Part shown: one piece after another, positions 11,236 through 58,284 of the stretch
How positions within the stretch are numbered: position 1 is the stretch's first letter
Layout: each line of letters begins with the position of its first letter
From: Isoetes taiwanensis
Lineage: Eukaryota > Streptophyta > Lycopodiopsida > Isoetales > Isoetaceae
Direction: 5' to 3'
Length of the DNA stretch: 64,000 nt
Assembly (NCBI GenBank): GCA_021234155.1
Contig: JAJEKV010000017.1
Coordinates: forward strand, 9,799,525-9,863,524
The notes under the pieces: generated by a model
The model's database searches: none
Told to the model about the DNA's origin: nothing
The model's input: only the letters and a program-made list of their open reading frames with translations
Program-made: the position numbers and the translations under genes

Positions 11236-12407
11236 CGAGGAAAATCTGCATCAGCGATAATTGCATGCCTTTTCCAACGCTATCCCGGAGCTCCGATTTG
11301 GGCGATGCGATTTAAGATTTAAGCAGCAAGATTTGAGATTCAAGCAGCGATTTAAGCTCCGATTTAAGGAGCCTTCAAGACTGCAATGCTAGAGCTCCAA
11401 GACCTTCAAGATGGCCGGCTAGAGCTCCAGAGGCCAGAGCTCTGTATTCGCTGAGATGCTTGTTTGGCAAATAATTGATAGCTAAGATGTTTCGCAGACG
11501 GTTTATCAAGATAAACAGGCAAGCAGATAGTGTATCAAGATGGACAGGCCGGATATGAGCTGTTACGGCTAATAACTGATTTCAATCTAACAGCTAAGAT
11601 CTAAAGTAGTCGAGGAACTGCCGGTTAAGTCCATCAAAATTACTATTTTCCATCCCTTTATGGTTTCTACTACATGGATGCTGCTGTTTAACTCCTCCAG
11701 GATTCGTTACGAGTGCCTATAAGCAGCATGGCGTAGAAAGCAGCATGGCACGCTTGGTCCTGACCATGCCTCCATTAGAGACGTTAGGTGTGTGATCTAT
11801 AGCCTTTGTCCAGATGAGGAGCCCATTGATAAGATAGGAAAGAGACGCCATAGATTTTGGGGCAATGCTATAGACTGCAGAGCTTGACGAGTTGGATGCC
11901 ATGCTAGATGAGGATGACGATGGTGCCAATGTAGATGTGCAAGATTATCCTCCATACGAGGAATATATTGACAAATTCCCAGCATTGTGCCTTGACACCA
12001 CCTTTCTTCCCTTCCAAGACTTTGTTCTCTTGCATTTTGCTGATGACTTAGATGAGGAAGATTCTGAATGTTCCATAATCTGGGGGCTACAAATCAATAA
12101 TACAAAGAGTCATGATATTAAATAAAATTTTAATGGCTCCATAGTAAGATGCCTAGCCTATACTCCGTATTCCTGTGCTCGACCCAAACCCCCGATCATG
12201 CTCCCATAGCTTTCGGCCGACTCATACCCAAATCGAAACTCACTAGATGACGAAAGAATTAAAGGAAAAGGGAAAATTGCGAGTTACAGAGGTGGCTTAC
12301 CTGATTCAGGCACAGAACTGAGCAAAATTGGACCGATTTAAGGATAGAGGCTTCAAACTCCGGTGCTTACTGGAGAAGGGCGGTGTACTTGAAAGGACGA
12401 CAAATAG
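11236..12407. other. no recognised gene
   Basis: Includes a run of 'gatttaag'/'agagctcca' short repeats (11300-11450). An acidic plus-strand open frame (11892-12125, e.g. DELDAMLDEDDDG) lies here; I cannot assign it to a family. Confidence 0.3.
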
Positions 12408-12602
12408 GAGCCAGGCAGCATACGTGGCACGACAGCAAGGGGGAAGGGCAAATAGATAAAGCTAATTCTGCTTGCTAGTAATCATATATATAGAAGGAAA
12501 ATAAGAGCCAAGCAGTATACAGTATACGTGGCACGACAGCAAGGGGGAAGGGCAAATAGATAAAGCTAATTCCTCTTGCTAGTAATCATATATATAGAGG
12601 GA
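12408..12602. repeat. tandem duplication, about 100 bp
   Basis: Two near-identical copies begin at 12408 and 12505 and end with 'atcatatatatag'. The second carries a small extra 'tatacag' duplication. Confidence 0.85.
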
Positions 12603-13199
12603 TATAAGCATGAGCAATGGATACTATCTTTTGAATTGAACTAAAGGGCAATATTATCCTCTGTCTTTTTTTGAGCTGAACATCTTCAGTGCTTAAAAAC
12701 CAAATAGATAAGAATAGAGACAATGGTAGGACTTCTTTGTCTTCCTTTTTGGTTGGGATTGTATAATCATATGAGAAACGACGATAATAAGATTTAACAT
12801 AATAAAACTGAGACAAATGCAACTATACTTAGCATCGCATGACATAAAAAGCATGATGGATGGATTTCAAAGCAAATGCCCCGTCCATAATTCCTGCATC
12901 AACCTGGCAATGGCATCTCTTTTAAACGAATTCAAGTAGTAAGTATTGACAAGAAACAAATATATAATCCTGTACGTAGCAAGGATCCATTCGCAACTAA
13001 TGCATTTTACATTTGTCCAGAAAAGCATCTTTCCATTCCACAGTTAATATTTTCTAGAAGAAAAATACTACAGCCTGTGGACAATAGACATCCACATTAG
13101 ATAAAATTCAAACCATCACTAGAAAACAATTGACAACTTCCATGCTTTCACCGTTGCTACGAAAACCAGCCAGATGGTTGCATCCCTTCTAGAAAGCTT

Positions 13200-14474
13200 T
13201 TAGTCAGAGTCTTCATATACACCACCATCATCTGAGAGCTCATCAAACTCCCGCATATCTAACTGGTATCGCAAAATGCCACCAATACCTCCAAATCCTC
13301 TACAAAACTGTGATCCTTCCTGAGATTTATTGGTGACAAACTCCAAGGTGCAACCGAACTTTTTATAGTTCTCAGCAAACCATTCCAACAAGGACTGCTT
13401 GTCCTGAACCTCCAGCTCTGCTTGTGTTTCTGGATCCAAGTGCTTAATCAGAATTTCACCAGTAACACTGTGTTTCAATTCATAACGGTTGACTTCAAGG
13501 TTTTCCCAAACAATCAATGTCTCCACAGCACCCATTTCCAAGGCCTTCAGTGTGTCATCCACTCCAAAAACATACTTTCCAGTGTCCTGACTAATCTCCT
13601 CAAAGTACTTCCCAATAAGCCGCTTTTCCTGAATGAACTTAACATTGGACAAGATTTCTGAAGAGAGTTCTATAGCTTGGTTGAAACCATTTTCCCCACC
13701 ATAAGAGACATCTACAACATTTAAAATTTTGGCTTGAAGTCGTGGATCAAACATATCAGATTGACTTAATTCAGTCTTAAAATCTGCTGATCCAGCCAAT
13801 ATTAAACCAACAACATTAGGCTGGCTGGTAACTGAATTGATGAAAAATTGTGTCGCTAACTCTGCAGTCTTTCTGACATAATTGTGCCTCTTCTCCATTC
13901 GGAGCCTAGCAAAACGGAGAGCAGATTGCCCACCTCTCCCATGCTTTTTAGGAAGGTCTACAGTAAACTTGTGCAGAACTTCACGAGTATTACCACTCAG
14001 TGTCCCAAACAATGTGCCATTACCATCCATCACAATAAATCCAAACTTGTCATCTGATTCCAGCAACTCATTGAGAGCCTCGGTGTGGAATTTATTATCA
14101 CACAAATAGAGGGATGCATTTATAGGCTTAAACGGCTCAAAATCGATTGTTACCTTCTTTTCCTTGCCATCATCAGTAACTATAGTACCAGTATATAGTA
14201 CCAGGCCATTATTAGGAACCTTATTGTAAAGCTTTAGACGCTGCTGTGCGGATGTAATGGCACCAAGTACGGATTGCCTGTTAACTCTATTCTTGATATT
14301 AGATGCAGTACCAAATTCATCCCCAAGCATCTTAGCAACTCGAGAAATCTGATCACGTGGTGGCATTATAAGAGAAATCATACTTGTTCCATTACCACGA
14401 GCAGATTCCAGTGCCTTGATAAGTTTCTTAATTTTCCATATCTGAATATTCTTATCTTCTCCTGTATCTGCCAT
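13200..14474 (-). CDS. eRF1: eukaryotic peptide chain release factor subunit 1 (eRF1)
   Basis: Uninterrupted 424-aa frame. It decodes stop codons in the ribosomal A site and triggers peptidyl-tRNA hydrolysis, acting with eRF3 in the cytosol. The N domain has the GTS loop ([13 protein letters not shown], about 28-39), an altered NIKS motif reading N59-I-K-N62, and YLCDNKF (123-129). The M domain has the catalytic GGQ (181-183, in KKHGRGGQ). The C domain keeps SQEGSQF and [12 protein letters not shown] and the acidic end YEDSD. The Ser-to-Asn change comes from codon AAT at 14289-14291. From memory, plant eRF1 is about 434-436 aa; this one lacks roughly 10 residues in the C-domain minidomain (between IKHLD and LLEWF). 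The intronless CDS is normal for plant eRF1, and the 5'-UTR intron argues against a retrocopy. Otherwise it is intact. Confidence 0.97.
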
Positions 14475-14489
14475 CTTCTCTGTCTGTCA

Positions 14490-14749
14490 CTGCAAAACTC
14501 CACAACTTAGACAACCTTCATTTCACCAGTAACAAATTTTAAGAATTTCGCGTTTTGACGGAAACTCAACCGATAACAGCAGCAACTAAAGATTTATACT
14601 TCTTAGAACTTCTAAAGAAAATAGAAAACTAGACCAGGATCCGTCCTGGGGAACCCTAGACTAGTTCATCTACCCTCTAAAGTTCCCTGACTAAAACCGT
14701 AAGACAATCACAATACTATACACCAAAGATGAGCTAGTTCAGAATTAAC
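14490..14749 (-). other. 5'-UTR intron of eRF1
   Basis: On the minus strand a GC-rich leader exon ends TTCAAG|GTTAAT (donor at 14749). An acceptor GTTTTGCAG ends at 14490, leaving 15 nt of leader before the ATG at 14474. The 260-bp intron is inferred from splice signals and from the common presence of such introns in plant eRF1 genes. Confidence 0.65.
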
Positions 14750-29767: not shown

Positions 29768-31598
29768 TTTAATGGACCTATGGGAGACTGCTCGAGTAGA
29801 TCTTGGTGTGGCTTTTCCTGATATCACCATAAGAGGGTGGGATGGATTTCCTGGATGGTTTGGCTAGTTGGATAGGCTGGGGTGGTTAAGGAACGTTACA
29901 AATGGTATCAAAGCAGGGCTCAAGTTCGAGTCTCCATGGGGCTATGTATGACCTGGATGCCATTGGACGGTATGGTCTTGCTTGGTCTTGGACACCATGG
30001 GTTGGTGTGGTTTATGGTCTTTTGATGCTCGAGGACAACTATAGTTCTAGTGGAAGAGATTGTAACGGACCTATGGGAGACCACAGAGTAGATCTTGCTG
30101 TGGCATTTTTGGTACCAGCATAAGGAAGGAAGGAAGGAAGGAAGTATATTTTAACGTCCGCGGAGGCCAAACTTGACCTATGAGACGGTACATGCAGTAC
30201 ACAAAGCAGATAAAACCACACCAAAAAGACAAATGCTACTATACAATGTGTCCCTACTACTGGGATGAAAAAACCCCCACATGGGAGGAAAAACCCTGGT
30301 AGTAGGCTCTCAGATCCCTTGTCCTATAAGGGATTCTCTGACGGTAGAGACTTGCAAAATGTAGGATGCGAGACGTGCAACCATTGGCGATGCCAGCAAT
30401 TGATGCAGCGGTGCCTCAGAGCATCTAAGATCAGCATGTGTTGCTCGGATATGCGTATATGCGGACACTCTTGCGGGCGTGGTGCTCATCCCTCTTGTCG
30501 CATGTGGCAACACCGGCATATTCTCTCATCGGGGGATTCTCTCGCCCTCCATCGTAGTCCAACGACTGTCTCAATTGCGAGATGATGGGACCCGTCCTCC
30601 GCGGAGGCAATAGCTCTCCGTTTCTTCATAGATATATGCGCTTTCAAATCTTGGTGTGGGCCATGTTCGGTGTTGGATTAACTGCGTGTGGTAGTGCTCT
30701 GTTTTAGGCTTTGCACGAAGTGGTCGCATCCCGCAGTGGTGGCAAAGCGCTCATTCGGTGTCGCCCTTTGTCCACGGGCATCGAGGCATAGCCACAATCT
30801 GGCTGGTAGTCTATAGACCCGCGTTGCGAACCACCCACGGCGGTGCTCTGCCATACCCTCCTCGGTCGTTGTGGCTCTTGTGCCAATAACAAAGCCCTGG
30901 GGGAAAGGCGTTGTGTATCCATGCTAGTGACCTTGTGGAAATATGCAAGATGTCTGCGCGCAGAAGAGAATGTTGCGAGGGCGAACCAGTCTCATATAGC
31001 AAAATCGATAAAGGCCGTGTCCTTGATACCTAGGTCGTATGTTAAGAAGGCCTTACGCACCCTCTCTAGCTTATCGGTGTTCTTGCTAATTCTTTGGACC
31101 CCATACCTCTACCCCATACAACAATCTTTGGTTCAACGAGTGCTCACGAGCAGGTGTGCTCGTGCCTTGATCACATAGGTCTAATCAGAGCGGCTATTAC
31201 GCATAGCATACAGGGCTTTCCATCCCGCGCTGACCCGTCTTTCCACACAGTCATCCCAAAACATGTTAGAGCAAAAGTCAATTCCCAGATACTTGAAGGT
31301 CCTTACAACATCCACCTTCTCTCCTCTGTAATAGAGATCTGGGATATCATGCTGCGAGGAGAGGATTGCCAGGAGCTTAATTTTCTGCAAGTTCACCGTC
31401 ATTCCTGTTGTGTCACAGAACCCACTAAGAGCGTCCAAATGCTGCTGCATACTCCTGGCTGTATGGGATAGCAAGTCTACATCGTCTGCATAGAGCAATT
31501 GCTTTATACTGTATGCATAAGAGGACGGGATGGATTTCCCATAAATATCCAGATGTTTTGGCCAGTTGGATAGGTCGGGATGGTTAAGGAATGTTACA
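29768..31598 (+). mobile_element. TRIM (terminal-repeat retrotransposon in miniature), split by a LINE
   Basis: Left LTR is 29768-29900. The right LTR is 30061-30122 plus 31521-31598, split by a LINE. LTR ends are TGTAAC...GTTACA in the right copy; the left copy starts TTTAAT by mutation. Two bases after the left LTR lies TGGTATCAAAGC (29903-29914), an initiator-Met tRNA primer binding site. A purine-rich tract TGGAAGAGA (30051-30059) precedes the right LTR. The target duplication AAAAT (29763-29767 and 31599-31603) is perfect. LTRs of about 133 bp and an internal part of only 160 bp without coding are exactly the TRIM plan, so it must have used proteins of another element. Confidence 0.88.
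30123..31513 (-). mobile_element. LINE family A, 5'-truncated copy inside the TRIM right LTR
   Basis: Target duplication GCATAAG lies on both sides (30116-30122 and 31514-31520). On the minus strand it starts in the RT with QLLYADDVDLL, then VNLQK, TFKYLGIDF and RRVSAGWKALYAMRN; past about 31181 the frame is broken. The 3' end has the GCGGACGTTAAAA terminus and a (TTCC)n tail at 30123-30144. It is inserted within the right TRIM LTR and therefore younger than the TRIM. Confidence 0.88.
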
Positions 31599-31629
31599 AA
31601 AATTACCAATTTAATGAAACTGGTATAAA

Positions 31630-33570: not shown

Positions 33571-34495
33571 TGTGATCATTTAGTAAGGTGTAGTGGAGTT
33601 TTTCAAAGGTTTTGTTTCTTTGCTTGCATGTGGTAAGCTCGAGATGCTGAATGTTGGTTCTTTTGTGGGAGATATACGGCGAAGCGGAGGCTATAGATGC
33701 AAATGGCGATCATGAGCTTTGGAAAATGAGTGTCCGACTAGGAATGGCAACTCTGATTCACCCAAGTATTTGTTTACTTAGGAAAGAAATAAACAATCTA
33801 ACACGATTAAATGATACTTTAGTGACACCTCGTGCTATCACGTATGATGATTGGAAAGTTGAATCTATTTTGAGTATTCTCTTGTGGGGGTATTGGTAAT
33901 ACGCACATTCCAAATCAACATGTTTCAAAGTGAGCCTTCATTTCGTTATGACATCCCTTTGAGTGGGGGTGTTAGAAATATTTGGTCAGCTGGAGGATGA
34001 TTATGGAGATTCTTCTTGTTAACAAGTTCTTCCTCTTGCTGTAGACGGGTTCTTTTCAGTGTTGGGCAAATTATGGGGAACATTATAAACCAACCGGTTG
34101 GAATTGGAAATTTTTCGGTCAAGTAAGTGTATCACAGGAATTTTTCCGACAAGTTTTCTTGTGGTTTTCTATTAAGACAATAGAAAGTTCCGGCTCTAAA
34201 CACAGGATATATCCGACTGGCCAAAGTAACTGTAGAAAATTTTCCGACGGGACCTAATGATATGTTTGGCTTCTATATTTGGTACATTTTATATTGTAGA
34301 TATGGAGGAGCTCGGTATTTCTAATATAATTAAAAAATTTTACTTTAATATATACTTAGCCCAAATGTGTGTGAACACCTCCTTATTCCTGAAGTCTAAT
34401 AGTAGATTTAGAAGATGCGCTTTGGGGCCCGCGCTCCACTTAGGAGCATCAAGTAGAAAGAAGGATGGCTTTTGGCAATTTGGAGTGCGAAAAAG
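33571..34495. other. no recognised gene
   Basis: An open frame at 33651-33899 has no known domain. The sequence immediately upstream of the extra metacaspase exon shows no clear promoter element. Confidence 0.3.
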
Positions 34496-34790
34496 ATGCT
34501 GGTGAATTGCAGTCGTTGCCGGACTCCTTTGCGGCTGCCGGGAGCTGTGAAGAGCGTGCGTTGTGCACTTTGCAAAGCTGTTACAAAAGTATACCCTCCT
34601 CCTCCCACCCCTACATCCACGCCCAATCCACCATCTCCTCATGGTTCTAAGAAAGCGGTCATCTGTGGAATCACTTACAAGTATTCTCGGAGGCTCCGGC
34701 TCCAGGGTTGCATTAACGATGCCAAATGCATGCGCCACTTTCTTATCACCAAGTATCGCTTTCCTGAAGCTTCTATACTCATGCTTACAG
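34496..34790 (+). pseudogene. type I metacaspase first exon (duplicate, or alternative first exon)
   Basis: Open for 98 codons from ATG 34496 to a donor ACAG|GTAAGA at 34790/34791. It encodes the LSD1-type zinc finger (Cys 5, 8, 23, 26; RTPLRLPGA), a Pro-rich linker, then KKAVICGITYKYS, GCINDAKCMRHFLITKY and SILMLT. This matches exon 1 of the complete metacaspase at 47758, with the same phase-1 donor, but differs at many residues and has a shorter linker. No second to fifth exons follow before 47 kb, so the catalytic His and Cys are missing. Either it is a truncated duplicate kept open by chance, or it serves as an alternative first exon spliced to 49279. Confidence 0.75.
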
Positions 34791-35813
34791 GTAAGATCTC
34801 TTCTTGGATTTTTTCCCACATGGTATAATGCTATTTGTAACTCTTGTTTCCCGTAAGTTCATTAGGATCAAAGCCTGTAATTAGAAATATTAAGTATTAG
34901 CTGTCATAGCCCCTGCTCACACTTTGAATAAGTAAGCCTTGAGTTAGCTGCTCATTTTAATATGTTTGAGAACACCGAAACGTTTTTTACAAGCATTCAA
35001 ACAAGCAATTGCAGCCCTTCGTCAACAAGAACACTCGACCATTACGATGCTAGAGATAATGTGATGGATTGATAAGCTGAATTGAGTGGCTTTTGAAGCA
35101 GACAATCCATGGCAAAAGAGATTCCATACCTAAGTGAAGTCGGGTGTGGTTATTCATGCTTTTTTAAGGTTTACCGTTTCTGGCATGATTCGATTAGAAT
35201 GGAGTTCTCCAAATTCTTGATATTGGTTACCATAAAGGGTGATGACCATCTCAACTGAGTGATTATATCTTAGAAATCAGGCATCTCCTAAATTCTAGCT
35301 CCAAAGTTGTCCATTTTTCATTCATCCATAAAGGAAAAGGAATAATCTAACAATTACATTAACAATAATAATTATCAGAAAGAAATAGGCAAAGAGTTTT
35401 CATCCAAAACATCAATAATCTGGCATCTTAAAATTGTGCTTTGCTAGAGGGAGAATCTTTCCTCAAATATAGTACAATAGCAAGGAGGGTATAGCTTGTC
35501 AGATGCTTTTATTTTACTTTTGAGCATGAGTATTATTCTTCATGTTTTCATCCAATTCCAAGAAGAGGATCAATGTTCTCACCATGTTGTGACGTCTTAT
35601 ATATCTTCCTTGATGCCATAGTTAGGTTGCCCCATCGCCCAGTTCCATATCTCTCTTATGTTTGAGTTCCATATCTCCTTATGTTTGACGCTTGAAGATG
35701 AGCTCCTTAAAAACTTGGCCCTCAAGTTTTATAGCTGGGTGTTGCCCATTGAGGGCCTATAAACACCTAGTTTGTTATCCAAGTGGCCATAAATAAACAC
35801 CTAGCATATTTAT
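34791..35813. other. no further metacaspase exons seen
   Basis: AT-rich sequence searched by eye for the SGHGS and DSCHSG exon on both strands; not found. No other gene recognised. Confidence 0.45.
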
Positions 35814-39690: not shown

Positions 39691-40510
39691 CGGGTGGTCT
39701 CATGGAATTGTCGAGGCTTCCCTTGGAAGAAGGGGGACAATCTCAACTCCATGGCAGCCGATATGGATCTCATCTTTCTCATGGAGACATGGGAGCATCT
39801 TTGAGCCACAGGCTACGTCTGCCGGGTTACCAACATTTCGGTCTTCAATACATGCGGGGACGGAGGGGTCATGGTGGGGTTGCTTGCTACTACCGGACAA
39901 CCTTGGCACATTCGGTTACCCTCCGAACACGGCGGACACAACCCGGTACTTGTGGGTTCGTGTGCACAATACCGGTGGCAACCCCTTTTTCAAGGTCACT
40001 TTTGTTATTTCCCTCACGCAGAGAGCACCTTCTATCGCAGCCACTCCGATGCGGATAGGATGGACCCTTATGTCGATCTATATGATGACATACAGCAGCA
40101 CAAGCAGTTGGGTAGGGTCGTCCTTCTTGGGGATTTCAATGCATGGACAGGAGTAGAGCAGCCCATGAGACTTGACCCCCTCGCTGACGATGTCCTGCAG
40201 CTACGTCCCGCAGAGGCAACCTGGCCACGAGGATCGGATGACAGCCAGGTCACTCGCTTTGGCAGACAGTTGCTCCTGCTATGTGGTATTTTTGACTTGA
40301 TAATTTGCAATGGCCTGTCACAGTGGCCCGCTTCTCACAAGTGCACCTGCAGACAGGACAATCAGGGGGGAGGGTCTAGTGTGGTGGACTATGTGCTCGT
40401 AGTTGCGCAAGATATGCATCTCATCAGTCGTTTCCGGGTGGGCACCGACAGTCGGGATGAGGAGGTCGACTCAGATCACCTCCCACTTTATTTGGACATG
40501 GTTTGGCAAG
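39691..40510 (+). pseudogene. LINE AP-type endonuclease domain
   Basis: Motifs appear in order across shifting frames: VSWNCRGFPW (39697), LIFLMETWE (39768), HGGVACYYR (39870), GDFNAWTG (40129) and DSDHLPLYLD (40470). These are the metal-binding and catalytic positions of LINE endonucleases (N, E, D-N, S-D-H). The frame changes at least three times and a TGA follows METWEHL, so it is dead. The enzyme nicks target DNA to prime reverse transcription. Confidence 0.88.
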
Positions 40511-41099
40511 CCGCCAGAACCCCCACTATGCCAGCCCCTCGCCATCCTCAGTTGCGACTGGATTATGAGCAGGCAGAGGACTACGTCGAGATGCTCATGG
40601 GACGCCCGGCAATTTCAAGCGGACCCCCACACTAGAGCGTGCAGCACGGACCCGGTTGATCGAAGCTATTACGGGATGCGGCGGGCCGGAGTGCTTTTGG
40701 CAGACCCCTTCCCCCTCCCGTGGCTCGGGGACATCAACATTTTCGTGTAACTGGTGATTTGATGCGGAGTATAAAGAACGCAAGCGCTAGCTTCGGGTCA
40801 CATCTCGGATCCGGTATTCGCTTGCCAGGCCACCACCGCGTGCCGCCCATCCGGAAGGAGACAAAGGCATGGTACCTTGCCGGGCATCGGGGAGATGTTG
40901 ACCTTTGGACACTCATCCTCGAACCTTTTGGCCAGAGTGCTTCAAGGCCAGCCCGACCCTCTGAGGGGGACATCACACCAGGCAATGGGAAATGCTTTGC
41001 GGCAGCTCTATGACCCACGGGGGACGCAGCGTCGCCCATACCCCCATAGGATGGCCCCATTGGTTATCGCGAGGAGGAGGATGTTGTGGAGGGCCCGCA

Positions 41100-47402: not shown

Positions 47403-47757
47403 AGTACATCATCATAGGAAAAGATAATCTTGTGAAGTTGCTATTTACGACGGCGCCTATTTTTGTAGTACTCTTTTTCCACTAGTGTAACACATTAATA
47501 GGAGGATACTACAAGACATCTTCCATCGAAACACCTGAAATTGGTATTTGAGCGGAACTGTAGTAGAAAGTCTGAGGGAGCCCGTAGGATTTCACGGGCC
47601 CCATGACGCGGTCCTGTTTTTGAAATGCAGTGCGCTCTCGCAGGGGCCTTCTCGTCGTGCTAGGGGTAGGCTCCCGGAATTGGAGCCCTGATGTGGAGTA
47701 TAATCTTTGCAGATCTGGAAATTCCGGCCGTTTGTACTTCGGACAGCAGAAATTATC
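47403..47757 (+). promoter_or_regulatory. metacaspase 5' flank / probable leader
   Basis: The ATG at 47758 is the first that gives the conserved LVDC zinc-finger start. The reading frame is open upstream back to 47707 but without a Met codon. Transcription start and core promoter elements cannot be fixed by eye. Confidence 0.35.
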
Positions 47758-50700
47758 ATGTCTCTGATGCTTGTAGATTGCGCCGGTTGTCGGACTCCCT
47801 TGCAGCTGCCCCCGGGTGCCAAATCCATTCGCTGTGCTATTTGTCAAACAGTAACCCCTGTAGCAGATTCCAGATGGTGCATACCTAACGGTGCTATTCC
47901 TAATGGTGCATACCCTCCTCCTCCTTCTCCACATGCCCCCCCAGCTTTGAATCCATTGCAGTACGCTCCCAGCGCTCCGCCCACACATGGCTCTAAAAAA
48001 GCAGTTATTTGTGGGATCACCTACAGATATTCCAGACATGAGCTCAAAGGCTGCATTAACGACGCTAAGTGCATGCGTCACTTACTTATCACTAAGTACC
48101 ATTTTCCGGAGAGTTCAATACTCATGCTTACTGGTATTTCTTACTTGTCCGTTTGATAAATTGAGTATTGTAATATTATTTCTTAGCTAGAGATGCAAAT
48201 TAACTTGTGGAGTTCTCGTGAGAGTTAGATTAAGTTGCCATTTTCAACCGAAAACGACTTCAATTTGCAACGCTTCCAAGTCGTAGACCAGTTGTTTTCT
48301 TCAAATCATAGACTACTACTACTACTACTGCTACTACTATTATTTTTGCATGAGCTTCCAAATCATAGACCAGTTGTTGTCGTTTTCAAACTTCTCCAAA
48401 AGCTAAAACCAATTGTAGAGCAGTGCCTTTGTTTAAGAAAACCTCTATCTGCACACATTGGAAGAGGTTCTCTGGTAAATATATTATATTTTTTTTGCTC
48501 TTTCTGGAACAAACTCAGGTTAGATGTCTTCAATGTATTATGGACTTTTTTTTGCATCGTTTGATTGGAAGGTTCTTCAGTCAAGTGAACAATGGGATAT
48601 TCACCTAATGTAGTGTTCGATGAAATCTGTCAAGCGCTATTTTGCTCGTAACTCTAAGGAGCAAGCTATTGGACTATTGTTTGATGGCTAAAAGCGTTTT
48701 CATGCTTTTGCCTGGAGCCTGTTCGTGTTCACCCAGTATATTGTCTGGTTTCTTAAATCAGGGTTGGTTTTCAAACCATTCACATCAAACTCAAGACCAT
48801 TCACAGTCCTGCACCTCATGTTCTTCAAAGTACTTGCTCAGCCACATAGGTTTTCCAAATTGTAAGAAGGGCAGGCAAAATACAACCTCGTTTTCAAAGG
48901 AGTAGTGCAATATATTCTTGCAAGAAGCCATAATTGGGCCTCAAATTTTACATATGAAAGAATAGCAGGACCCTTACTCCCTAGATATAAGGAGGCAAAT
49001 TAGATGGGATTGTTAAGCCCTGTTTAGGCAATTGGACGGTAAGGAAAAATATTCCTAGTTGAAGAATGTAGGATGTGCTACTGGCAGCTTTGAGAGATTT
49101 GTTCGGACTGCATACATCATGTACTGCCTACATGGTCTTAAACTTGGAATCTGTTTGTTATATTTTTGGCCATCAGGATGTATGTTATTCAGGTGTAGTT
49201 TATATGCTTTCTTGGTATTGTGAATTTCAGAAATTGAGTACTACCTTGAATGATAAGTTGAACTTTATTGTAATGCAGAGGAAGAAAGAGATCCTTTGAA
49301 AATTCCAACCTTGCGGAATATGAGGATGGCCATGTATTGGCTTGTGCAGGGATGCCAACCTGGGGATTCCTTAGTGTTCCATTATTCTGGCCATGGATCT
49401 CAACAACGCAATCTTACTGGGGAAGAGGTTGATGGTTATGATGAGACATTATGCCCTGTTGACTTTGAGACGCAAGGTATGCTGGTAGATGACGAGATTA
49501 ATGCAACACTTGTGAGGCCACTCCCAACAGGTGTACGACTCCATGCCCTTATTGATTCATGCCACAGTGGTACTGCACTGGATTTGCCCTTCGTTTGCAA
49601 GTTTGACAGGTGATCATATCTGATTTTATTTGATTCGATTGTGACGGACATTTGGTCTTTGTTTAGTACATTATTAAGCATATATATATTGAATTTTGCA
49701 AAAAATAGGTGTAAGCTCTAAAATAAAGCAAGGAGTTGTTTGAAAATGTTGCTTAAATAAGATGATTGTGTTCAACCAGAAAGGTGAAAGGTGATTGTCG
49801 TTGTGAATAAATATTAGATGGTTCATTTTAAATTATTTAGTTGCCATGCTCTAGGCATCTGTAATTTTGATCAAATACCGCATCTGCTAGCATTTTAGAA
49901 AAAGGGAGAGGTTCTATAGTGTTGTCTTCTTATGATCATGATATAAGCTGGAAAGGCAGGGACGTTTTGCCCTTTCTGGAGGTGCTTCTGGATTCCATTG
50001 CCAACTTTTTATTGAATCTGGCCAGAGCTATAGAGCAATTGCGAATTTTTTTATTGAATCTGGCTAGAGCTACAGAGCTATATGCACACATGTGAACATA
50101 TTGAGAGGCCATATTACCATGTCCCGAACTCTGAGATTCTAAATGGCCAAGCCCCAACTGATATCATCCAATGAGGAATCAAGTGGGTTCTGCTTTATGT
50201 CAATTTTTTTATGTTTGGATGTTCTTATGCCTCATGTATTTCTGACTATGGCCCTGAATGGTCAATGGGAAATTGGACTTTGTTTATAGTGCTTTCTGTT
50301 ATGAACCTTCCCTAGCAAAATGTTTCAAATCCCAAGAAATTCCAATCCCCACAAGCAGTACATTGCAGAGCTGTCATACCTGCTATGTTTCTATCGAGAG
50401 AAGCACTTCCCAAGAAATTTCAATCCCGACAAGCAGTACATTACAGAGCTGTCATATGAAGAAATTATTTTCTGAGGGCTATTACAGTGAAACCAAAGTA
50501 GCATTAACAATATGAGGAAGGGGCGTTGCAAGTAGAAATATTTTGCAATGTTAAATATGTTACAAGTTCAACAACAAGTTGAGAATCGTCTGCAATATAG
50601 GGTAGCAGGAACATTTCACCATGTGAGTGTACATTGCTTACAAGTAAATCTGCACACTGGGAGTCTGAGAGGTTTCTAAGTTCTAACAAGGAGACTGCAA

Positions 50701-56492: not shown

Positions 56493-58190
56493 GTCTAATG
56501 CTCACTTGAGCCTTGAGAGGCTATGGAGCACATGAACAAAACCAGTTACAAGTTTTGTAACAAGGCACGGTGTGAGTCAACCGCCCTTATATACAATCCC
56601 AGTTTTTTTGGTGCTACAGTAAGTAGTGAATAGAAATCCTGTGCACTTATTTCAAATTTGTTCCTGATGTCTTCGTATGCGGGGCATGTTAAGAAAACAT
56701 GTTCCTCATCCTCCACATATCCTGTATCGCAGAGATTGCATTTTCGTTCTTCAATTGGAATCTTGGTCCAACGACCTGTTTCTATTGCCAGCCTATGAGA
56801 CCTGGTTCTATACCTGGCGATCAATCTTCTTTGAGCTGGGGATAGATTTGCTCCCAAGTAAGATTGGCCTGTATAAGTTTCCATGTGGTTAACCTTTGCT
56901 TTGTATATTTGCATCCATTTTCCAGGGACTGCCCATAGCTTTTGCACTGCCAATTTTTCTAAAATATTTCTGAGTTCTCTCTTATCTTTTGGGCAGGTGG
57001 ATATATCGAGCCCCCATCTGTTGGCCCATGCCGCCAGATTCCGTGGCCAATTGGAATTGACCATGGCTTCGTGAGACAGCCGATCAGATCCATGTTCCAT
57101 ACCCTCCACTTCAAGTGGGAACAGCCCAGTTTCCGCGAGCATCAACGCATAGGGAATTTGAGACTTGATCCCAAGTTCGATCTTTAGGAACAGTTTTAGG
57201 ATGCTTTCAACCTGCGCCCACATCCGAGATGAGAGATCCGGGCCCCAAATGGGAACACCATAAAGTACTACGGTTTGGACCAGGGATTTAAACAAAATAC
57301 ACTTCAAATGCCAATCTGTGAGGGAGGCCTTACTGCATTTTGCTAGCATGCTGAACAAGGCCGCTTTCCCACCCAGGACTCTTCTTTGAAGACAGTTCTT
57401 CCAGCTATAATTTGAAACAAGATCGATACCAAGGTATTTGTAAGAGTCTACCATCTCCAAAATCTGTCCTTTGTAGGTGAAATCAGGCCGGTCTCTCGTC
57501 CCAAACACCATGATTTTGGATTTGGCAAGGTTTACAGTCATTTTTTTCTCTTCACAAAAGCTCTCCAGATTGTCTAAATGTTTTTGAAGTGTGGTCTTTC
57601 TACTTGCAAGTAAGACCACATCATCTGCGTAGAGGAGGAGTTGTATGAGGTATGAACCCATTTTTGCCCCTGCTCTCAACCAATCATCAAACTCGTCAAT
57701 GAAAATCCCGAACAAAGTCGGGGATAAAGGACATCCCTGGCGGACACCTATTGTGCTTCTGATCTTGGTGTCCAAATCCCAACAAACTTTGATCAAAACC
57801 TCTTCATATAACTGTGAGATACTGCTGCTCTTAACTCGAGAGGGACTCCAATTTGGACAAGCCTTTCACTGAGTTCTTTTCGTGGGATAGTGTCAAAGGC
57901 CTTCGAGAAGTCTATGAATGCCATGTACAGGGAGGAGTTTGGCGTCTTAGCTTTTCCTATTAGAGTCCGGAGCGTAAGCACGTGATCTAGCGTACTGTGA
58001 TTTACCCTGAAACCAGCTTGATACTGAGACCGAACCTGTGCTAGCTCTGCCCATGTACTGATCTTATTTTCCAGAAGACCTCCCAGAATTTTGGAGAACA
58101 CGCTGCCTATCAAAATAGTTCTGTAATTCCCCATGTCCTTTTTGTCTCCTCCCCATGCCAAACTTATATGGATGTAAAAATAACAAACAA
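56411..58190 (-). mobile_element. LINE family B, 5'-truncated, with (AAT)n tail
   Basis: Minus-strand element covering the RT to the 3' end. Its tail is an (AAT)n run of about 27 units (56411-56492). The preceding 3' UTR is very short and contains the small hairpin AGCCTCTCAAGGCT. The 5' end stops in the RT at about 58190 (near GDKKDMGNYRTI). Confidence 0.85.
56546..58160 (-). pseudogene. LINE family B reverse transcriptase and Cys/His region
   Basis: From 58160 leftward: MGNYRTILIGSVFSKILGGLL, YQAGFRVNHSTLDHVLTLRTL, MAFIDFSKAFDTIPRKEL, then a single frameshift near 57800, then 416 open codons: IGVRQGCPLSPTLFGIFIDEF, LLYADDVVLLA with catalytic Asp-Asp intact, MTVNLAKSKIMVFG, SYKYLGIDLVSN, VLYGVPIWG, and a C-terminal finger CNLCDTGYVEDEEHVFLTC. 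One indel and the missing 5' half are the only visible defects, so the copy is fairly young. Same broad LINE type as family A by motif order. Confidence 0.9.
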
Positions 58191-58284
58191 TTCCTGAAAC
58201 CATAGACCATATATCCCTAAAACAATTGAATGGGTTGTTATAAAAATAAAAAAAACATAGATTCAAGATAAAAAATAATCACAT
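58191..58284. other. left flank of SINE-like element
   Basis: AT-rich; no feature. Confidence 0.3.

What the first reader, a model, noticed from the sequence alone, without database searches (positions are those of the whole stretch)
14286..14297. eRF1 with an altered NIKS stop-codon recognition motif (NIKN)
Seen directly: residues 59-62 read Asn-Ile-Lys-Asn, the last codon being AAT at 14289-14291. The NIKS tetrad contacts the stop codon and is nearly invariant in organisms with the standard code; its Lys is a hydroxylation target in animals and changes at the Ser reduce activity in human eRF1. Departures at or beside this motif are known mainly from ciliates with reassigned stops. YxCxxxF, GTS and GGQ are all normal here. 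Either this is a tolerated plant variant, a second eRF1 paralog with changed stop preference or efficiency, or a gene in early decay.
Basis: partly seen in the sequence, partly recalled or inferred. Interest (0 to 1): 0.75.

Follow-up and report, generated by a model that had tools for sequence, protein, structure and literature searches.

The report
Quillwort release factor with NIKN motif
A plant gene for eRF1, the protein that ends protein synthesis at stop codons, carries one unusual amino acid in a motif that normally reads NIKS, but the copies of the gene found in this genome share the change and all three stop codons are in use, so it looks like a tolerated, long-standing variant and not a broken or recoded factor.

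Summary
The window's minus strand (13200-14474) encodes an intact 424-residue eRF1 whose stop-codon motif reads NIKN; the Asn codon AAT is at 14289-14291 (tetrad 14289-14300; the given interval is one codon off). It is neither a special second paralog nor a decaying gene. The genome, which fits the published Isoetes taiwanensis assembly, shows two intact eRF1 genes and five damaged copies; the six copies that keep domain 1 all read NIKN with codon AAT, and no NIKS copy was found. The two intact genes are 93% identical in protein but near saturation at synonymous sites (dN 0.05, dS 1.1-2.7), so NIKN probably predates their split and both are under purifying selection. TAA, TAG and TGA all follow conserved protein ends, so this factor presumably reads all three. 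Best reading: a tolerated, lineage-fixed Ser-to-Asn change in an ordinary omnipotent eRF1. Asn here was noted in 2008 for e/aRF1s in general; searches listed no land-plant case. Effects on termination efficiency are untested. The window copy alone also lacks 12 minidomain residues.

The parts
13200..14474 (-). eRF1 coding sequence, 424 aa, single coding exon, TAA stop
   Evidence: ORF, three Pfam eRF1 domains, best solved match eRF1 chain 8ip8
14289..14300 (-). N-I-K-N tetrad (residues 59-62; human 61-64)
14289..14291 (-). AAT codon: Asn in place of Ser64 (human numbering)
   Evidence: same codon in 6 of 6 copies that keep domain 1
14382..14390 (-). GTS motif, intact
14211..14213 (-). residue 88: Asn where 8ip8 and human eRF1 have Pro (VPPNG to VPNNG; paralog VPTNG)
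14088..14108 (-). YxCxxxF motif (YLCDNKF), intact
13926..13934 (-). GGQ motif, intact
13434..13439 (-). junction of a 12-residue in-frame deletion in the domain 3 minidomain (between L346 and D347); the C1027 and C1064 copies keep these residues
13266..13280 (-). GILRY motif (eRF3 contact), intact
   Evidence: role from PMC2613156 passages
14490..14749 (-). inferred 5'-UTR intron (GT at 14749-14748, AG at 14491-14490)
   Evidence: read by eye; no transcript data

Best explanation
This is one of two apparently working cytosolic eRF1 genes of a quillwort (almost certainly Isoetes taiwanensis). A single-step Ser-to-Asn change at the fourth residue of NIKS became fixed, most likely before the two genes duplicated, and every eRF1 copy found that still has the motif carries it. 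Lys63 (human numbering), which reads the first uridine, its neighbours Asn61 and Ile62, and the Arg68 that holds the loop are all kept, so the loop should still read U1 and the factor should still accept UAA, UAG and UGA. The fourth residue is a position where change is tolerated. Shown here: the sequence, the lack of a NIKS copy among those found, purifying selection, and use of all three stops. Inferred: that the protein is made, that termination is normal, and that one substitution before duplication explains both genes.
For: Six of six copies with domain 1 have NIKN with codon AAT, from a protein search with 16 matches at 7 places (the seventh, C953, lacks domain 1). A domain-1 model search gave 11 matches: these six, three Pelota genes, one Pelota-like fragment and one short unidentified partial match. 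The two intact genes give dN 0.045 (NG86) or 0.047 (LWL85) and dS 2.70 or 1.12, with synonymous differences right beside the motif, so no recent gene conversion. Stops after conserved C-termini: histone H4, 20 places, TAG 13, TAA 7, TGA 0; histone H3, 17 places, TAA 13, TAG 3, TGA 1; DYW-type PPR proteins, 34 places, TGA 24, TAA 9, TAG 0, TGG 1 (tallied). In the 30 archaeal aRF1s read (best-scoring; 58 of 59 genomes searched had a match), the fourth residue is S in 22 and D in 8. [quoted passage not shown] yeast S61P, the same position, was as a single mutant indistinguishable from control in a stop-suppression assay (PMC12440015, preprint, passages).
Against: No expression, protein or termination data. 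TGA is rare in the histone sample (1 of 37). The same yeast S61P was modestly enriched in a screen for stop suppression. None of the 30 archaeal aRF1s read had N. Other lycophytes and other plants could not be examined. Gaps in the assembly could hide another copy.
Confidence: 0.85

Rival explanations
1. NIKN changes termination quantitatively: slower release or higher readthrough at one stop or context, tolerated or even used by the plant, without any change of the genetic code.
For: The motif's Lys63 reads the first stop base (PMC5681627, passages). Residue 88 in the same domain is also changed in both genes (N and T for P) and could be linked. TGA is 1 of 37 in the histone samples. D at this site occurs in Tetrahymena and Paramecium eRF1, which use altered codes (PMC4695839 Table 2). 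Yeast S61P was modestly enriched in a stop-suppression screen.
Against: TGA is the commonest stop in the DYW sample (24 of 34). The histone places include likely recent duplicates (12 distinct strings of 20, 9 of 17). Yeast S61P alone was indistinguishable from control. [quoted passage not shown]
Confidence: 0.15
2. A further eRF1 with NIKS exists but lies in an assembly gap or was missed, so that the NIKN genes are specialised extras.
For: The assembly is not complete (genome BUSCO 94.5%, PMC8566536 Table 1), and the search tool warns that a missing match does not show absence.
Against: A protein search and a family-model search agree. Two open NIKN genes under purifying selection fit the main factors.
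Confidence: 0.04
3. Eroding gene or sequencing error.
For: The window copy has a 36-base in-frame deletion in the minidomain that the C1027 and C1064 copies lack; five other copies are broken.
Against: Open frame, dN/dS about 0.02-0.04, same codon in six copies.
Confidence: 0.02

Closest known systems
Canonical plant eRF1 (PDB 8ip8; wheat, species recalled)
   Same: All three domains, GTS, NIK, YxCxxxF, GGQ, GILRY; 90% identity to the window protein
   Different: Fourth residue of the tetrad N instead of S; residue 88 N instead of P; 12 residues missing from the minidomain in the window copy
Tetrahymena and Paramecium eRF1 (KATNIKD, EAASIKD; SIKN is also reported for eRF1 forms of both)
   Same: The same fourth position departs from S, in SIKN also to N (PMC2613156, passages; PMC4695839 Table 2)
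   Different: Those ciliates use altered codes and also change the neighbouring TAS and YxCxxxF residues; here TAS and YxCxxxF are standard and all three stops follow conserved protein ends
Archaeal aRF1 with NIKD (phylum of Heimdallarchaeum)
   Same: Fourth residue not S in 8 of 30 read
   Different: Archaeal factor; D and not N; about 30% identity
Amoebophrya eRF1 with RIKS
   Same: Changed NIKS motif also in species with a canonical code (PMC12005148, passages)
   Different: First residue of the motif, not the fourth

Membership tests
eRF1 (class-1 release factor) | Domains eRF1_1, eRF1_2, eRF1_3 and best match to eRF1 rather than Pelota | tested here: met
   paralog (the Pfam models alone also hit Pelota)
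eRF1 (class-1 release factor) | GGQ, GTS, YxCxxxF, GILRY motifs | tested here: met
eRF1 (class-1 release factor) | NIK of the NIKS tetrad (Lys63 reads U1) | tested here: met
eRF1 (class-1 release factor) | Ser at the fourth NIKS residue (usual but, per PMC2613156, not universal, so not counted as defining) | tested here: not met
   AAT, Asn
eRF1 (class-1 release factor) | Release of peptide at UAA, UAG and UGA | not testable with these tools
   indirect only: all three stops follow conserved C-termini
Stop-reassigned (ciliate-type) eRF1 | One or more stop codons read as sense in the genome | tested here: not met
   TAA, TAG and TGA each found directly after conserved protein ends; both intact eRF1 genes have open frames. 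Suppressor tRNAs were not searched for
Divergent second eRF1 paralog beside a canonical one | A NIKS eRF1 elsewhere in the genome | tested here: not met
   none among the 7 places found; assembly gaps remain possible
Pseudogene | Broken frame or relaxed selection | tested here: not met
   open frame, dN/dS about 0.02-0.04
Pelota/Dom34 | No NIKS or GGQ, best match Pelota | tested here: not met
   window gene matches eRF1 chains first; a Pelota gene elsewhere matches Pelota first

The most novel reading that the evidence does not exclude
The quillwort lineage (perhaps all Isoetes, perhaps other lycophytes) has run for a very long time on a standard-code cytosolic termination system whose only eRF1s carry NIKN, with linked changes (residue 88, and in one copy a shortened minidomain) that shift stop-codon efficiency or programmed readthrough in a measurable way. 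It would be a natural standard-code test of what the fourth NIKS residue does.
Probability: 0.12. Interest if true: 0.55.

Novelty: new variant of a known kind. Interest (0 to 1): 0.3.

Why it matters
Changes at the NIKS motif are readily taken as hints of stop reassignment. Here a land plant that uses all three stops appears to rely on NIKN, which suggests that the fourth residue can change without recoding and warns against using it alone as a marker. It also offers a natural variant for in vitro termination assays.

Tried and rejected
Rejected: sequencing error (same AAT in six copies); second specialised paralog (no NIKS copy found); decay; stop reassignment. Of the extra domain-1 matches, C1029 is Pelota by its PDB matches, C1072 and C1019 are judged Pelota from their very similar ORFs, C971 is a Pelota-like fragment by eye, and C1034 is a short partial match that I could not identify.

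Led nowhere: two scans of viral contigs confirmed no relative. The scan of genome contigs confirmed one archaeal aRF1 out of 49 pattern stretches, which seeded the archaeal sample. AlphaFold on a two-sequence alignment gave mean pLDDT 32 and was discarded. YN00 failed. Paper searches: NIKN with eRF1, 28 papers, 20 listed, none on release factors by title; eRF1, NIKS, plants, Ser64, 27 papers, 20 listed; eRF1 with S64 and NIKS, none; eRF1 with Selaginella, 14 papers, 10 listed; eRF1 with Isoetes, 2 papers, where the 'ERF1' of the I. sinensis paper is an ethylene-signalling gene. No listing pointed to a land-plant NIKN eRF1, but the unlisted papers and all supplementary alignments were not seen. 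Whether other plants have Asn here was not tested; that Arabidopsis eRF1s have NIKS is recalled.

Full report
Observation. The window's minus strand at 13200-14474 encodes an intact 424-residue protein with all three eRF1 domains; its best solved match is eRF1 chain 8ip8, which I recall to be from wheat. The other recognised motifs are normal. The CDS is one exon; a 5'-UTR intron of 260 bases can be read by eye between 14749 and 14490, without transcript proof.

Which organism. The genome holding the window has 1,658,258,908 bases in 1110 contigs. The Isoetes taiwanensis paper gives 1658.30 Mb in 204 scaffolds plus 909 contigs, 1113 in all (PMC8566536, passages). The identification as this quillwort, a lycophyte, rests on that close fit. 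The paper reports one ancient whole-genome duplication with Ks near 1.8, and a nanopore assembly polished with Illumina reads.

The copies found share the change. A protein search gave 16 matches at 7 places. Two are intact genes: the window copy and one on C1027 (438 aa, stop TAA). Five are damaged (C1064, C1053, C1058, C953, C915). Six of the seven keep domain 1, and all six read NIKN with codon AAT; the C953 copy matches only from residue 133 on. A search with the Pfam domain-1 model gave 11 matches: the same six, three Pelota genes, one Pelota-like fragment and one short partial match not identified. I found no NIKS copy, though an assembly gap cannot be excluded.

Age and selection. The two intact genes share 393 of 424 aligned residues. 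dN is 0.045 (NG86) or 0.047 (LWL85); dS is 2.70 or 1.12, near saturation and in the range of the reported duplication. Synonymous differences sit right beside the motif, so recent gene conversion does not explain the shared Asn. One substitution before the duplication is simplest; two parallel changes cannot be ruled out. In domain 1, at sites where 8ip8 and human eRF1 agree, both quillwort proteins differ from them at three positions only: 11, 62 (the tetrad) and 88.

Stop codons. If NIKN had lost one stop, that stop should not end proteins. Directly after conserved C-termini I found: histone H4, 20 places, TAG 13, TAA 7, TGA 0; histone H3, 17 places, TAA 13, TAG 3, TGA 1; DYW-type PPR proteins, 34 places, TGA 24, TAA 9, TAG 0, TGG 1 (tally). 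These are exact pattern matches, not annotated genes, and many may be recent duplicates (12, 9 and 19 distinct strings). All three stops are therefore in use, and the only eRF1s found must read them. The scarcity of TGA in the histone samples speaks against a simple reading; the DYW sample points the other way.

How variable the position is elsewhere. In 30 archaeal aRF1s read (the best-scoring loci from 58 matching genomes of 59 searched in the phylum of Heimdallarchaeum; the seed itself is one), the tetrad was NIKS in 22, NIKD in 7 and MIKD in 1; none had N. Atkinson and colleagues state that the S is 'sometimes present as L, N or D' and list SIKN for ciliate eRF1 forms (PMC2613156, passages). 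A table gives D for Tetrahymena and Paramecium, whose codes are altered (PMC4695839). Simulations assign U1 reading to Lys63, with Asn61 and Arg68 supporting the loop; Ser64 was not found by term search (PMC5681627, passages). Lys63 is hydroxylated in human cells for optimal termination (PMC3991326, passages). In yeast, S61P at this position was modestly enriched in a stop-suppression screen, but as a single mutant it was indistinguishable from control (PMC12440015, preprint, passages). Swart and colleagues see no obvious association between single eRF1 substitutions and genetic codes (PMC4967479, passages). Amoebophrya species, including ones with a canonical code, have RIKS (PMC12005148, passages).

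Verdict. NIKN here is real, shared by every eRF1 copy found that keeps the motif, old and under selection. It is best explained as a tolerated, lineage-fixed variant of an ordinary omnipotent eRF1. What remains open is whether termination efficiency differs, and how widely the variant is spread in lycophytes and other plants.

Noticed in passing
window 13434-13439 (minus strand): The window eRF1 lacks 12 residues of the C-domain minidomain; the C1027 paralog and the C1064 copy keep them, so the loss looks recent and private to this gene.
   Followed up: partly
L003/L007 (C1064), L005/L012 (C1058), L008/L010 (C915); source piece window about 12353-14542: A piece of the window eRF1 gene (part of the inferred 5' intron, CDS, 3' flank) sits inside a dispersed repeat: the three copies share flanks beyond eRF1, and an 881-base flank piece has 13 long matches in the genome, itself included, the others at 88-94% identity. 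This looks like gene capture by a mobile element.
   Followed up: partly
L046 (C1029), L047 (C1072), L048 (C1019), L049 (C971): Three very similar single-ORF Pelota (Dom34) genes of 363 aa and a Pelota-like fragment next to a simple repeat; they look like amplified copies.
   Followed up: partly
L027, L028, L034 (archaeal aRF1 loci): Three of the 30 archaeal aRF1 loci read contain one in-frame TAG within the match, an oddity for a release factor gene; recoding (for example pyrrolysine) or a frame problem.
   Followed up: no
window 56546-58266 and 31181-31609 (minus strand), 39871-40635 (plus strand): Fragments of probable non-LTR retrotransposons with reverse transcriptase matches; the endonuclease match is below its cut-off.
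   Followed up: no
window 34472-34828 and 47707-48156 (plus strand): Two ORFs with an LSD1-type zinc finger, one running into a caspase-domain match: probable metacaspase first exons, two in one window.
   Followed up: no
G000: Stop codon use differs strongly between families: TAG is commonest in the histone H4 sample, TAA in H3, TGA in DYW PPR genes.
   Followed up: no
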